In this document: piece by piece, positions 46,640 to 54,492 of the stretch | Layout of the letters: each line of letters opens with the position of its first letter | Position numbering within the stretch: position 1 is the stretch's first letter | NCBI RefSeq assembly: GCF_014205215.1 | Contig: NZ_JACHNC010000001.1 | Span: 2,361,001-2,425,000, forward strand | Direction: 5' to 3' | Source: Actinoplanes lobatus | GTDB lineage: Bacteria; Actinomycetota; Actinomycetes; Mycobacteriales; Micromonosporaceae | Length of the DNA: 64,000 nucleotides | The notes under the pieces: generated by a model | Seen by the model: the letters and a program-made list of their open reading frames with translations, nothing else | Databases searched by the model: none | Told to the model about the DNA's origin: nothing | Position numbers and translations under genes: made by a program

Positions 46640-47791
46640 GTGACGCACGTGTCCGAGCGCAGCAGTGCCGGATCCAACGGCGCCGAAGGAGGGGACCGTC
46701 AGCTGTGGACGGCCGGCTCCGGCCGGGGCGCGCGCAAGCGCCCGGCCACGTACGCGGAAGCGGGTGTCTCCATCCACGCCGGCGACCGGGCCGTCGAGCT
46801 GCTCAAGTCCAAGGTGAAGAAGACCTCCCGGCCCGAGGTGATCGGTGACCTTGGCGGCTTTTCCGGCCTGTTCCGGCTGAACACGGCGAAGTACAAGAGC
46901 CCGATCCTGGCCTCCTCCACCGACGGCGTGGGCACCAAGCTGGTCATCGCCCAGCAGCTCGACATCCACGACACGATCGGCATCGACCTGGTCGCCATGG
47001 TCGTCGACGACCTGGTGGCCTGCGGCGCGGAGCCGCTGTTCCTGCTCGACTACATCGCTTGCGGCGAGGTCGTCCCGGACAAGGTCGCCGAGATCGGCGC
47101 CGGTATCGCCGACGGCTGCCGGTACGCCGGCTGTGCCCTGCTGGGCGGCGAGACCGCCGAGCACCCCGGCGTGCTGCGCCCGGACGAGTACGACGTCTCC
47201 GCCACCGGCGTCGGCGTGGTCGAGGAGAGCGAGATCCTCGGCAAGGAGCGGGTCGAGCTGGGCGACGCGATCATCGCGATGCGCTCGTCCGGTCTGCACT
47301 CCAACGGCTACTCGCTGGTCCGGCACGTCCTGCTGGGCGCCGGCCGGATGCGGCTGGACACCGTGGTCGACGACTTCGGCACGCAGCGCACCCTGGGTGA
47401 GGAGCTGCTCACCCCCACCAAGATCTACGCCAAGGACTGCCTGGGCCTGATCGAGGAGACCGAGGTCCGGGCGTTCTCGCACGTCACCGGCGGCGGCATC
47501 CCCGGCAACCTGAACCGGGTCCTTCCCGACACCATGGACGCCGTGGTGGACCGTTCGACCTGGCGCCCGCAGCCGATCTTCGACCTGATCCAGGCCAAGG
47601 GCCGGATCGAGGACACGGAGATGGAGGCCACCTTCAACATGGGCGTCGGCATGTTCGCGGTCGTCTCCTCCGACGACGCGGACCGTGCGATGGCGTACCT
47701 GACCGGCCGCGGCGTCGAGGCGTGGCAGGTGGGCGAGGTCGTCGAGGGCACCGGTGAGGTGCAGATGATGAGCTCGTACACCCGCGGCTGA
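46640..47791 (+). CDS. purM: AIR synthetase (phosphoribosylformylglycinamidine cyclo-ligase)
   Basis: The 383-residue ATP-dependent enzyme closes the imidazole ring of AIR. Conserved parts are TYAEAGVSIHAGDRAVELLK, ASSTDGVGTKLVIA, DLVACGAEPLFLLDYIA, LLGGETAEHPG, and SGLHSNGYSLVRHVL. The first 35 residues are an actinobacterial extension. GTG 46640 follows GGGGAG by 4 nt. It is co-transcribed with purF. Confidence 0.97.
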   Translation: MTHVSERSSAGSNGAEGGDRQLWTAGSGRGARKRPATYAEAGVSIHAGDRAVELLKSKVKKTSRPEVIGDLGGFSGLFRLNTAKYKSPILASSTDGVGTKLVIAQQLDIHDTIGIDLVAMVVDDLVACGAEPLFLLDYIACGEVVPDKVAEIGAGIADGCRYAGCALLGGETAEHPGVLRPDEYDVSATGVGVVEESEILGKERVELGDAIIAMRSSGLHSNGYSLVRHVLLGAGRMRLDTVVDDFGTQRTLGEELLTPTKIYAKDCLGLIEETEVRAFSHVTGGGIPGNLNRVLPDTMDAVVDRSTWRPQPIFDLIQAKGRIEDTEMEATFNMGVGMFAVVSSDDADRAMAYLTGRGVEAWQVGEVVEGTGEVQMMSSYTRG

Positions 47792-47867: not shown

Positions 47868-47903
47868 TTTCGCGTTCTGGTGGACTGGGTGCCCTAACCT
47901 GAC

Positions 47904-48150
47904 CGGGCGGCTAGCGCCGCACGGTCCGACCCGGGCGGCTGGCGCCGCACGGGTCACTGGCTCAAGGTTTTATCGGGCCGGGCGGCTTGCGCCGCACGGT
48001 CCGACCCCGGGCGGCTGGCGCTGCGCGGGTTGCTCAAGGTTTTACCAGGCCGGGCGGCTTGCGCCGTGCGGTTCGATCCCGGGCGGTTTGTGCCGCACGG
48101 TTCTGACCCGGGCGGCTGGCCGTCGTGCGGGTCACTGGCTCAAGGTTTTC
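47904..48150. repeat. GC-rich composite tandem repeat array (7 units)
   Basis: Seven copies of CGGGCGGCTnGCGCCGC start at 47904, 47932, 47979, 48008, 48051, 48080 and 48109. Gaps are 28, 47, 29, 43, 29 and 29 bp. Units 2, 4 and 7 are followed by a shared GCTCAAGGTTTT segment, giving a higher-order period of about 75 bp. Most units can fold as a small hairpin (GCGGC/GCCGC). The array fills the noncoding gap between purM and the radical SAM gene. It is not a CRISPR and encodes no credible protein. Confidence 0.85.
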
Positions 48151-48214: not shown

Positions 48215-49339
48215 ATGGCGGTCGCGTGGAGCGGGATGCGGGGCGTCTCGGCGGAGCCGGGGTACGTTGTCATGCAGCCCACTACGCTCTGCAATCTGGC
48301 GTGCGACTACTGCTACCTGCCGTTCCGGCGGGAGAACCGGAAGATGCCGGTCGCGGTGGCTGAGGCGGTGGCGGCCGGAGTCGCCGGCTTCGCACGTACC
48401 GGAAGGTTCTCGGTCGTGTGGCACGGGGGTGAGCCGCTCGCGGCGGGCCGGGAGCACCTGGCCGCGCTGTTCGCGCCGTTCGGTGCGGGTGTCGAGCATC
48501 ACGTGCAGACCAACGCCACCCTGATCGACGACGACTGGTGCGAGTTCTTCACCGAGCACGACGTCCGGGTCAGCGTCAGCGTGGACGGGCCGCGCCGGCG
48601 TAACGGCGACCGGGTGGACCGGGGCGGCAAACCCGCCTACGACCTGATCATCCGCGGCATCGACCGGCTGCGCGCCCACGGCATCCCGTTCTCCACCCTG
48701 TGCGTGGTCGGCGATCCCGGTCCCGGCGTCGCCACCGAGCTGTACGAGTACTTCCTCGGCCTGGGCTGCGAGGTGCTCGGCATCAACGTGGAGGAGCTGG
48801 AGGGCGTCAACACCCGGCTGAACCAGCACGATCCGGCCGCGGTGAGCGCCTTCTGGGCCGAGCTGGTCGGGGCATGGCGCCGCGATCCGCGGATTCACCT
48901 GCGGGAGGTCGAGTGGTCGCTGCGCTACGCCGCCGCGGTCCTCGACGGCAGCGCGGACGAGCTGCTCCCGCGCCGGCACGACCCGATCCCGACGATCGCC
49001 CACGACGGGTCGGTGGTGCTGCTCTCGCCCGAGCTGGCCGGCTTCCACGACCCGCGGTACGGCGACTTCACCAGTGGCAACGTGCTGACCACCCCGCTGC
49101 CCGAGATCCTGGCCGGCGCCACCGGGACGCCCTGGATCCAGGAGTTCCTCCGCGGTGTCGAGGCATGCCGCAGCGCCTGCCCGTACTTCGGCTTCTGCGG
49201 TGGCGCACACGCCGCCAACCGGTACTTCGAACACGGCAGGTTCGACGTCACCGAGACGAACCACTGCCGGAACAGCAAGATTCGCCTATTGGAGGGAGTG
49301 CTGGATCATGCCCGAGATCACGAAGCCACGGCTGTCTGA
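48215..49339 (+). CDS. Radical SAM/SPASM peptide maturase, cyclophane-forming type
   Basis: The 374-residue enzyme has radical SAM motif CNLACDYC near residue 30, which binds the catalytic 4Fe-4S cluster, and the glycine-rich VVWHGGEPL. Its C-terminal SPASM domain carries cysteines in ACRSACPYFGFCGG and TNHC for auxiliary clusters. The overlapping peptide gene supplies the likely substrate. Family features and partner suggest it joins aromatic side chains to a beta-carbon two residues on (three-residue cyclophanes), as in XyeB/AmcB-type maturases. That activity is inferred. ATG 48215 follows GGAGG by 9 nt; GTG 48209 is also in frame. Confidence 0.88.
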   Translation: MAVAWSGMRGVSAEPGYVVMQPTTLCNLACDYCYLPFRRENRKMPVAVAEAVAAGVAGFARTGRFSVVWHGGEPLAAGREHLAALFAPFGAGVEHHVQTNATLIDDDWCEFFTEHDVRVSVSVDGPRRRNGDRVDRGGKPAYDLIIRGIDRLRAHGIPFSTLCVVGDPGPGVATELYEYFLGLGCEVLGINVEELEGVNTRLNQHDPAAVSAFWAELVGAWRRDPRIHLREVEWSLRYAAAVLDGSADELLPRRHDPIPTIAHDGSVVLLSPELAGFHDPRYGDFTSGNVLTTPLPEILAGATGTPWIQEFLRGVEACRSACPYFGFCGGAHAANRYFEHGRFDVTETNHCRNSKIRLLEGVLDHARDHEATAV

Positions 49340-49535
49340 CGGCGTGGAGACGGATCCGGTGACGGCACGGGTGCACGACACCCGGGCCGGACTGGCCGCG
49401 CTCATCGCGGAGGCGGAAGTGGCCCGCAGGCAGCGCGCCGAGGAGACGCCGCAGGATGGCGGATCGGCGGTCTGCGCCTGGAACCACTTCGAGAACATTC
49501 CTACGTTCTACAACTGGAATAACCGGCCACGCTGA
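49308..49535 (+). CDS. RiPP precursor peptide with four aromatic-X-Asn/His motifs
   Basis: The 75-residue peptide starts at ATG 49308 inside the maturase gene, overlapping its end by 32 bp, with GGAGGGAG 9 nt upstream. Residues 1-52 form a charged helical leader (LAALIAEAEVARRQRAEE). Residues 53-75 are the core and contain W58-N-H60, F61-E-N63, F67-Y-N69 and W70-N-N72, four tripeptides of the form aromatic-X-Asn/His. This is the pattern modified by triceptide (cyclophane) radical SAM enzymes. A single Cys56 precedes them. No dedicated protease or exporter gene is adjacent. Confidence 0.85.
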   Translation: MPEITKPRLSDGVETDPVTARVHDTRAGLAALIAEAEVARRQRAEETPQDGGSAVCAWNHFENIPTFYNWNNRPR

Positions 49536-49659: not shown

Positions 49660-49905
49660 TCAGCGCCGCCTTGTCGGCGACCAGGGGTCCTGGTCCCAGG
49701 TGTCCTGGTCGTCGTCCGCAGCGTCGTCCTCGTCATCGTCCTCGTCATCGTCGACGAACTCGTCGTTGTCGTCGTCGAAGTGACGGTCCGATTGGCGGGC
49801 ACCCGCCAATTCGCGCTGCAAGGCGGTGAGGTCGGTGTTCGGGGAGTGATACTTCAACTCCCGGGCCACCTTCGTCTGCTTGGCCTTAGCACGGCCGCGC
49901 CCCAT
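49660..49905 (-). CDS. DUF3073 family protein
   Basis: The 81-residue protein begins MGRGRAKAKQTKVARELKYHSP, the hallmark of DUF3073. An extremely acidic Asp-rich stretch follows and the end is basic (PTRRR). The family is found across actinobacteria next to purM (for example beside purM in mycobacteria). Here the RiPP locus separates it from purM. ATG 49905 is the conserved start. Function unknown; it is small and probably nucleic-acid- or ribosome-associated given its charge. Confidence 0.93.
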   Translation of the reverse strand: MGRGRAKAKQTKVARELKYHSPNTDLTALQRELAGARQSDRHFDDDNDEFVDDDEDDDEDDAADDDQDTWDQDPWSPTRRR

Positions 49906-50086
49906 GGCTCGACCCCCTCGCACAGAATTCGGGGCAGCCCGAAGGCGGTCCCCGATGACGTCAGGCATCTCTCGTGGGTCTTACGGTACATGGACGACGG
50001 CGCGTTCGGCACCTCGGGTTGCGTGTGACACTGCCGCGCGTCGCGGATGAGTTTCTCCAGCGGCGCGCGGCAGGCCCTCGAAGACC

Positions 50087-52762: not shown

Positions 52763-53134
52763 TCAGTCGACCAATACGGCGACAGTGCCGTCAATGCCAC
52801 GCCGCAGCCGGCTGCCGAGCATGGTGAGCCGGCCGATAATTCCGTACTTCTTCTTGATTTCCTCGCCGACGCGCAGCCGGTCGCCGTGGTCGCCGATCCG
52901 CGCGGTCGCCTCGATCGCCTCGCCGGTGGGGTTGCCCCGCATGTCGCAGGCGGCCACCGTGACGCGGCCGCTGTTGCGGATCCGCTTCAGCTTTCCGCTG
53001 CCCGCCACGGTCCAGAAGCCCAGACCGGAGCCGTCGGGCACCACCCACAGTGGGGTCGACACCGCCCGCCCGTCCCGGCGGAACGTGGTGAGCAGGACGT
53101 ACTTCTCCGAGCCTAGTTGCTCCAGTGCGGCCAT
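52763..53134 (-). CDS. PPOX-class F420-dependent oxidoreductase
   Basis: The 123-residue split-barrel flavin/deazaflavin protein reads YVLLTTFRRDGRAVSTPLWVVPDGSGLGFWTVAGSGKLKRIRNSGRVTVAACDMRGNP, typical of the Rv2061c-like PPOX/F420 group. These small enzymes bind F420 and reduce diverse substrates. The gene is divergent from the methyltransferase gene with only 18 bp between starts. Confidence 0.92.
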   Translation of the reverse strand: MAALEQLGSEKYVLLTTFRRDGRAVSTPLWVVPDGSGLGFWTVAGSGKLKRIRNSGRVTVAACDMRGNPTGEAIEATARIGDHGDRLRVGEEIKKKYGIIGRLTMLGSRLRRGIDGTVAVLVD

Positions 53135-53152
53135 GCGTCAAGAGTAGTGACC

Positions 53153-53929
53153 ATGACAGAGCCGACGACCGGCGACGCCTTCGGCGAGATGATCCGGGAC
53201 GCGTACGCGGTGCACATCGGGGCCGGGCGACGTCCCCTGGCCGGCGGGCGGTACCCGCGACCGGTGATCGAGGTGATCGAGCGCGACGACGGGCTGATCA
53301 ACGGGGCGCTCGCGGCGCACTACCTGAGCGAGCCGGCGGACTGGCGGCCCTTCGACCACCGGGCCATGACGTTCTGCCGGGGCCGGGTGCTCGACGTCGG
53401 GGTGGGCGCCGGGCGGACGGCGATCGAGTTGCAGCGCCGCGGGATTGCGATCACCGGGCTGGACACCTCGGCCGGCGCGATCGAGGTGGCCCGGAAGCGG
53501 GGGCTGCGCGACACCGTGCTGAACACGGTGGACGAGTTCTCCCGGGCGAGCGTCCGGTACGACACGTTCCTTCTGCTCGGCAACAACCTGGGGCTGATCG
53601 AGGGCCGGGAGCGGGCGCCGGCGTTCCTGGCCGCGCTGGCCCGGCTGGCGGCGCCCGGCGCGCGGATCGTGGCGCAGGGCACCGACCCGTACGGGACGAC
53701 CGATCCGGTGCAGGTGGCCTATCACGAGGAGAACCGGGCCCGCGGGCGGTTCGGCGGGCAACTGCGGATCCGGTTGCGCTACCGGGAGGTGGCCAGCGAC
53801 TGGTTCGACTACCTGAACTGCTCGGTCGACGAGCTGGAGGAGCTGCTCAAGGGCACCGGATGGCGCCTGAAATCCGTCGACGACCAGGACCACCCGTACT
53901 ACCTTGCGGTCATGGAGTTGATGGAATGA
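53153..53929 (+). CDS. SAM-dependent class I methyltransferase
   Basis: The 258-residue protein has SAM motif I in VLDVGVGAGRTAIELQRRGI, motif II acidic residue in TGLDTSAGAIEVARKRG, and NNLGLIEG further on. N-terminal residues 1-70 form a helical cap. The target is unknown. Its stop overlaps the kptA start (ATGA), so the methyltransferase and the RNA 2'-phosphotransferase are made together, which may hint at an RNA or nucleotide substrate. ATG 53153 is used; GTG 53147 is possible. Confidence 0.88.
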   Translation: MTEPTTGDAFGEMIRDAYAVHIGAGRRPLAGGRYPRPVIEVIERDDGLINGALAAHYLSEPADWRPFDHRAMTFCRGRVLDVGVGAGRTAIELQRRGIAITGLDTSAGAIEVARKRGLRDTVLNTVDEFSRASVRYDTFLLLGNNLGLIEGRERAPAFLAALARLAAPGARIVAQGTDPYGTTDPVQVAYHEENRARGRFGGQLRIRLRYREVASDWFDYLNCSVDELEELLKGTGWRLKSVDDQDHPYYLAVMELME

Positions 53930-54492
53930 CAGTTCTCAACCGCGACCAGGTCCGCCTCAGCAAGCGGATGTCCCTGGTTCTGCGGCACCGGCCGGAGACG
54001 GCCGGTCTGACCCTCGACGCGAACGGCTGGGTGCCGGTCGCCGAGCTGCTGGCCGCGCTCGGCATGACCCGTGCCGAGCTCGACCTGGTGGTCGCGCACA
54101 ACGACAAGGCACGCTTCGCGGTGTCCACCGGCCCGGACGGTGTCGACCGGATCCGGGCCAGCCAGGGGCACTCCCGGCGGGTCGCGGTGGATCTCGATCT
54201 GCCGCCCGCGTCCCCGCCCGCCGAGCTGTTCCACGGCACCCCGCGGGCGAACCTGGAGGCGATCCTCCGGGAGGGGTTGCGCCCGCGGAGCCGTCATCAC
54301 GTACACCTGTCGGTCGACGTGCCGACGGCCGTGACCGTCGGTCGCCGGCGCTCGCCGGACGTGGTCGTCCTCCGCGTCGCGGCGGGGGTGATGGTGGAGC
54401 AGGGACACGTGTTCCACCGCAGTGACAACGGGGTGTGGCTTACCGCGATCGTGCCGTCACAGCACTTATCGGAAAAACGGACAAATCCGTAA
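53926..54492 (+). CDS. kptA: RNA 2'-phosphotransferase (Tpt1/KptA)
   Basis: The 188-residue protein carries KRMSLVLRHRPETAGLTLDANGWV, the N-terminal winged-helix part with the catalytic Arg-His-Arg. The NAD-binding part is ELFHGTPRANLEAILREGLRPRSRHHVHLS, and it ends GHVFHRSDNGVWLTAIVP. Tpt1 enzymes move an internal RNA 2'-phosphate to NAD. Bacteria lack the tRNA splicing that creates such ends, so the natural substrate is unclear. It is coupled to the upstream methyltransferase. Confidence 0.95.
   Translation: MTVLNRDQVRLSKRMSLVLRHRPETAGLTLDANGWVPVAELLAALGMTRAELDLVVAHNDKARFAVSTGPDGVDRIRASQGHSRRVAVDLDLPPASPPAELFHGTPRANLEAILREGLRPRSRHHVHLSVDVPTAVTVGRRRSPDVVVLRVAAGVMVEQGHVFHRSDNGVWLTAIVPSQHLSEKRTNP

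What the first reader, a model, noticed from the sequence alone, without database searches (positions are those of the whole stretch)
48215..49535. Candidate multi-cyclophane RiPP: radical SAM/SPASM enzyme overlapping a peptide with four aromatic-X-Asn/His motifs
Seen: a CxxxCxxC radical SAM enzyme with SPASM cysteines overlaps by 32 bp a 75-residue peptide. The peptide's last 18 residues contain WNH, FEN, FYN and WNN. Known: XyeB/AmcB-type maturases join an aromatic ring to the beta-carbon of the third residue in such triplets. Inferred: up to four cyclophanes in one short peptide. The maturase-first order with overlap and the lack of a local protease or exporter are unusual.
Basis: partly seen in the sequence, partly recalled or inferred. 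Interest (0 to 1): 0.8.

Follow-up and report, generated by a model that had tools for sequence, protein, structure and literature searches.

The report
Cyclophane peptide pair at conserved locus
This is a known kind of enzyme-and-peptide pair predicted to make ring-locked peptides; what stands out is that it sits at the same place beside purine genes in most sampled genera of one bacterial family, with a nearly unchanging peptide in most of those, which suggests that it serves the producer rather than acting as a variable antibiotic.

Summary
The identification is right but not new: both proteins pass NCBI's curated cut-offs for maturase AmcB and 'multiple cyclophane-containing RiPP AmcA'. 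Maturase-first order, overlap and housekeeping flanks are the norm for this locus. Comparison supports three aromatic-x-acceptor triplets; WNH is lost in eight sister genera. In the 24 genera with this core type the core is almost fixed (pN 0.009, near BldC's 0.014); over all 34 genera the last two triplets vary more (pN 0.165) but keep their aromatic and terminal Asn positions. Best reading: a core-genome triceptide with a role for its producer. Cross-links and function are untested. Two rare AmcB-AmcA fusions were seen.

The parts
48215..49339 (+). amcB, radical SAM/SPASM cyclophane-forming maturase, 374 aa
   Evidence: NF041718 523 bits vs cut-off 425; PF04055; CxxxCxxC and C-terminal Cys conserved in 33 of 33
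49308..49535 (+). amcA, precursor peptide, 75 aa, overlaps amcB by 32 bp
   Evidence: NF041722 114 bits vs cut-off 65; 1081 homologs
49308..49466 (+). AmcA leader, residues 1-53, variable
   Evidence: pN 0.58 over the 36 codons before the core, compared without gaps, so an overestimate
49467..49532 (+). AmcA core, residues 54-75, AVCAWNHFENIPTFYNWNNRPR
   Evidence: 24 of 34 locus-linked genera have it, with Tyr68 to Phe in 5 and one RPSR end; pN 0.0085 over 21 codons in these 24
49479..49487 (+). triplet WNH (58-60), least supported
   Evidence: lost in the eight FED-type peptides
49488..49496 (+). triplet FEN (61-63)
   Evidence: FED or FSD in the FED-type peptides, WTD in G023
49506..49514 (+). 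triplet FYN (67-69)
   Evidence: FFN, FYQ, FYE, FWE, FTE, YYN in relatives
49515..49523 (+). triplet WNN (70-72)
   Evidence: WNN, FTN or FSN in 34 of 34 locus-linked genera
49291..49298 (+). ribosome-binding site of amcA inside amcB, suggesting translational coupling
   Evidence: sequence; overlap in 109 of 111 loci
47894..47901 (+). degenerate copy of a promoter-like element (TTCACC-N18-TAGCCT in relatives, read by eye)
   Evidence: core motif upstream of amcB in 16 of 33 loci vs 12 of 1083 control tiles; motif chosen after seeing the sequences
46652..47791 (+). purM, conserved upstream neighbour (start not examined)
   Evidence: AIRS domains; synteny
49660..49968 (-). DUF3073 gene, conserved downstream neighbour (start not examined)
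   Evidence: PF11273; synteny

Best explanation
AmcB binds the variable leader of AmcA and, by radical SAM chemistry, joins aromatic rings (Phe61, Phe67, Trp70, perhaps Trp58) to the beta-carbon of the residue two places on (Asn63, Asn69, Asn72, perhaps His60), giving three or possibly four three-residue cyclophanes in the C-terminal 18 residues. The overlap couples translation of enzyme and substrate. The pair was gained once between purM and DUF3073 in an ancestor of most of the family and is kept there; in most genera the peptide core is under very strong purifying selection. The product therefore most likely has a fixed role for the producer itself (developmental or cell-cell signal, envelope factor, or peptide cofactor), and any leader removal or export uses unlinked general machinery. 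Shown: gene anatomy, family membership, synteny, distribution in the sample, selection on the peptide. Inferred: the cross-links, their number, leader recognition, the single gain, and the self-directed role.
For: Curated models. amcB in 259 of 300 family genomes at E <= 1e-80; AmcA_3a in 249 of 300 at E <= 1e-3. Locus-linked in 34 of 44 one-per-genus genomes; each of the 24 AmcA_3a hits over the cut-off, found without reference to the enzyme, lies beside an amcB hit. In the PurF+PurM tree the 31 locus-bearing tips form one clade (support 0.952); nine genera without amcB and one with only a remote copy fall outside it. 80 of 80 named loci have purM before and DUF3073 after, but these were found through the core motif. 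In the 24 type-3a loci core pN/pS is 0.0085/0.39, BldC 0.014/0.44, AmcB 0.164/0.47: the constraint is on the peptide, not the DNA. In 34 of 34 locus-linked genera the last seven positions compared read aromatic-x-N/Q/E-aromatic-x-N (the search pattern demanded this form).
Against: No cross-link is shown here. Acceptors named in the passages I saw are Arg, Asn, Asp, Ser and Ala, not His; and Gln or Glu stands at the acceptor place of the second triplet in relatives. The near-fixity holds for the 3a type only, which defined the 24 loci: over all 34 locus-linked genera the last two triplets have pN 0.165 and pS 0.40, no lower than AmcB among the 24. Eight of 34 genera carry the FED-type core and 2 are more divergent. 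Enzyme tree and species proxy disagree over some lineages, so alleles have probably been replaced. Of 41 family genomes without amcB only 20 were listed, so losses among the other 21 cannot be excluded. No expression data were seen.
Confidence: 0.55

Rival explanations
1. AmcA is a conventional antimicrobial or competition RiPP that happens to lie in a conserved genomic place.
For: Other cyclophane-type RiPPs are antibiotics: darobactin (abstract of PMC9055067 in the listing) and dynobactin (figure legend in PMC11002830 passages). The core does change between genera.
Against: Near-fixed core in 24 genera, no loss among the 34 locus-linked genera's clade in the sample, no exporter recognised among the neighbours scanned. 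That competition peptides usually diversify is general knowledge, not tested here.
Confidence: 0.2
2. The core is fixed only because AmcB is a fastidious enzyme, not because the product has a conserved target.
For: Enzyme and peptide go together.
Against: Among the 24 loci AmcB changes about twenty times more at nonsynonymous sites than the core (0.164 vs 0.0085), and related AmcBs go with FED-type and FDN-repeat cores. It does not explain retention.
Confidence: 0.13
3. AmcA acts as a small protein with a conserved C-terminus, and AmcB's modification is incidental or different in kind.
For: No linked protease recognised among the neighbours scanned; no mature product known to me.
Against: The triplets keep aromatic and mostly Asn/Asp-like places while residues swap (FEN/FED/WTD, WNN/FTN/FSN); AmcA_3a hits lie beside amcB in 24 of 24.
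Confidence: 0.12

Closest known systems
AmcB/AmcA actinobacterial triceptides (NF041718 with NF041722 AmcA_3a)
   Same: Both proteins pass the curated cut-offs; the peptide matches model positions 1-58 of 58. NCBI already names the Actinoplanes missouriensis peptide AmcA.
   Different: Nothing tested sets the window's pair apart; it is a typical member. The primary paper (Phan and Morinaka 2022, doi 10.1021/acschembio.2c00621) was seen only as a title in reference lists and was not held; that it describes this family is recalled.
AmcA_3b (NF041723)
   Same: Two of the eight FED-type peptides at the same locus were scanned and pass the cut-off with 104 and 101.7 bits.
   Different: No Cys and no WNH triplet; the window peptide scores 37.6, below the cut-off of 65.
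AmcA with FDN/WDN repeats (AmcA_1, NF041721; model tested only on L091)
   Same: amcB-amcA order, repeated aromatic-x-Asn triplets; L091 tail 56.8 bits vs cut-off 40.
   Different: Not at the purM site; enzyme about 40-47% identical to the window's.
GrrM/OscB and XyeB cyclophane maturases
   Same: Radical SAM/SPASM architecture; OscB and XncB join Trp or Phe to the beta-carbon of Asn (PMC11002830 passages).
   Different: Window AmcB is below both cut-offs: 232.9 of 310 and 62.8 of 450.

Membership tests
AmcB (NF041718) | score above the curated cut-off | tested here: met
   523.3 vs 425 bits
AmcB (NF041718) | CxxxCxxC plus C-terminal SPASM-type cysteines | tested here: met
   Cys26/30/33 and 318/322/328/351, 33 of 33 locus-linked sequences; that these four are the SPASM set is inference
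AmcA (NF041722) | score above the curated cut-off | tested here: met
   114 vs 65 bits, model positions 1-58 of 58
Triceptide precursor | several aromatic-x-Asn/Asp-like triplets conserved among homologs | tested here: met
   three of four kept in class in 3a and FED types, with Gln/Glu at the acceptor of the second in FED types; WNH not kept
Triceptide | ring carbon to beta-carbon cross-links i to i+2 | not testable with these tools
   needs MS/NMR
XyeB | score above the curated cut-off | tested here: not met
   62.8 vs 450 bits
GrrM/OscB | score above the curated cut-off | tested here: not met
   232.9 vs 310 bits

The most novel reading that the evidence does not exclude
A 'housekeeping' triceptide: a multiply cyclophane-locked peptide that belongs to the core genome of most of an actinobacterial family and in most genera is fixed in sequence like a regulator or cofactor, acting as an endogenous signal, morphogen or cofactor rather than an antibiotic.
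Probability: 0.45. Interest if true: 0.75.

Novelty: new member of a known kind. Interest (0 to 1): 0.45.

Why it matters
[quoted passage not shown] A locus that sits at one place, shows no loss within its clade in a one-per-genus sample, and keeps its peptide nearly unchanged in most of those genera makes the question 'what do triceptides do for their makers' testable by deletion in genera that grow in the laboratory, such as Actinoplanes and Micromonospora.

Tried and rejected
Rfam gave no real hit near the pair (one match, 18.5 bits against a gathering score of 45). The sigma-70 consensus scan found no promoter; an element shared by relatives was seen by comparison instead. The direct repeats at 47903-48150 were considered as part of the system and rejected: the same unit occurs elsewhere in the genome (27 matches vs 6 for the reversed control pattern), while the purM-amcB spacer in relatives varies from near zero to about 400 nt. 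Linkage to bldC was considered as a functional clue and set aside: purF, purM, vdh and bldC share a block in Streptomyces too (PMC13118837 passages), and purM-DUF3073-LeuDH-bldC without an amcB match is present in outgroups G820, G862 and G708. Solved structures: three remote radical SAM sequences. Structure prediction was not run because it would not decide the open questions. Literature: searches for AmcA/AmcB, triceptides, three-residue cyclophanes and Micromonosporaceae listed no title or abstract that describes this locus as core genome; I judged by the listings and the passages read, and most subscription papers are not in that library. A search on RiPP precursor-enzyme fusions listed 8 papers; none was opened.

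Full report
Observation. The peptide ends AVCAWNHFENIPTFYNWNNRPR.

Identity. NCBIfam calls the enzyme AmcB (523 bits, cut-off 425) and the peptide AmcA type 3a (114 bits, cut-off 65); XyeB, GrrM/OscB and FxsB models are below their cut-offs. A protein search found 1081 relatives of the peptide, of which the best 120 were listed; several carry NCBI's name 'multiple cyclophane-containing RiPP AmcA'. Of those 120 plus the window, 119 of 121 have the identical 22-residue core; that list is ranked by similarity and so biased towards identity. In a second, also biased set (loci found by the AmcA model or the core motif, plus the one-per-genus and outgroup loci), 134 of 160 sources matched a loose core pattern: 126 identical, 5 with FFN, 1 with Val64, 1 RPSR and 1 RPRQ end (some genomes may be in it twice). 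The genome is probably an Actinoplanes: the best named AmcA match, 97% identical, is Actinoplanes utahensis.

Sampling by genus. I took one genome from each of the 44 genera that appeared in a 300-genome draw of the family, found amcB first, then looked at what follows it. amcB passes the cut-off in 34 of 44, and a contig-split copy lies in one more (G043). One of these 35 (G041) has only a remote copy. Of the 34 peptides, 24 have the 3a core (19 FYN, 5 FFN; G006 ends RPSR), 8 a FED-type core and 2 are divergent (G023, G033). Two FED-type peptides were scanned and pass the AmcA_3b cut-off; the G023 peptide does not (21.5 of 65 bits). Searched without reference to the enzyme, AmcA_3a passes its cut-off in 24 of 44, each time beside an amcB hit.

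Triplets. Read by eye, the unit before the IPT/FPT spacer is FEN, FED, FSD or WTD; the next is FYN, FFN, FYQ, FYE, FWE, FTE or YYN; the last is WNN, FTN or FSN. The last two fit aromatic-x-N/Q/E-aromatic-x-N in 34 of 34 (the pattern demanded this form). G033 has only the last two recognisable. The first unit, WNH, is replaced by WRP, WRA or PRP in FED-type peptides. So three cyclophanes are supported by comparison and the fourth is open.

Distribution and history. Over 300 genomes of the family amcB is found in 259 (E <= 1e-80) and AmcA_3a in 249 (E <= 1e-3). Of the 41 genomes without amcB 20 were listed: 18 belong to the nine genera that lack it, one is the contig-split G043 and one (G059) an 82%-complete genome of genus g33; the other 21 were not shown. 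In a PurF+PurM tree (46 tips; three locus-bearing genomes had no usable purF-purM pair and were left out) the 31 locus-bearing tips form one clade (support 0.952), and the nine genera without amcB, and G041, lie outside; some deeper nodes are weak. In those ten, DUF3073 lies 0.4 kb (G014), 1.0 kb (G040), 3.0 kb (G012) or 8.0 kb (G035) after purM without an amcB match, and was not seen in the stretch fetched for the other six, two of which end at contig ends. This fits one gain and no loss in this sample. Outside the family the enzyme is sparse: 2 of 396 phylum genomes at E <= 1e-60, both of this family; 12 of 394 class genomes at E <= 1e-40, 3 of them of this family. The enzyme tree puts the locus-linked copies together, with 3a nested among FED types, and disagrees with the species proxy for some lineages, so replacement of alleles is likely.

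Selection. In the 24 type-3a loci the core (21 codons compared) has pN 0.0085 and pS 0.39; BldC (23 loci) 0.014 and 0.44; PurF (22) 0.089 and 0.41; AmcB (24) 0.164 and 0.47. Synonymous sites in the core change about as in neighbouring genes, so the constraint is on the peptide. The leader figure (pN 0.58) is inflated by unaligned indels. These 24 were chosen because they have the 3a core. As a control over all 34 locus-linked genera, the seven codons of the last two triplets have pN 0.165 and pS 0.40: near-fixity is a feature of the 3a type, not of the locus as a whole.

Architecture. By a script that picks an ATG with a ribosome-binding-like sequence, 109 of 111 loci overlap, 80 of them by 32 nt (80 of the 111 are named loci found through the core motif). 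All 80 named loci have purM before and DUF3073 after. Of ten frames scanned at window 44.5-54.5 kb none is recognised as a protease or exporter; one had no Pfam hit. Flanks of relatives were compared only for these same genes. A promoter-like element TTCACC-N18-TAGCCT precedes amcB in many genera: its core motif occurs in 16 of 33 upstream regions vs 12 of 1083 control tiles. The motif was chosen after seeing the sequences, so this is descriptive.

Interpretation. A conserved place, retention within the clade, and a product nearly fixed in most genera point away from a competition peptide and towards an endogenous role. This is inference; no function or cross-link was tested.

Novelty. The molecule family is known and annotated. 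What I did not find in the listings of the library searched is a description of this locus as core genome with a near-invariant core; the primary paper was not readable here, so this may already be in print.

Noticed in passing
L091:3894-5204 (G862; same protein listed as Frankia canadensis) and L081:5507-6793 (G033; listed as a Dactylosporangium sp. MAG): AmcB and an AmcA-like tail are in one open frame with no stop between (437 and 429 codons). The Frankia frame matches AmcB (418.9 bits, just under the cut-off of 425) and AmcA_1 (56.8, cut-off 40). Each tail found only one protein, 100% identical to itself, in a search limited to relatives sharing short words, so these look rare; the MAG case could be an assembly error.
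   Followed up: partly
L093:1427-2530 (G708): A broken amcB-like copy with internal stops whose 3' part also runs in frame into a FDN/WDN tail.
   Followed up: no
window 47903-48150: Six imperfect copies of a 33-nt G+C-rich unit between purM and amcB; a 22-nt part of it matches 27 places in the genome with up to 2 mismatches, control 6. Looks like a dispersed repeat in the amcB 5' region.
   Followed up: partly
L046, L047, L048, L075: Further amcB-amcA pairs away from purM with FDN/WDN-repeat precursors; many genus g4 genomes show a second amcB match.
   Followed up: no
window 53125-54492: RNA 2'-phosphotransferase (Tpt1/KptA) domain in the C-terminal part of this frame.
   Followed up: no
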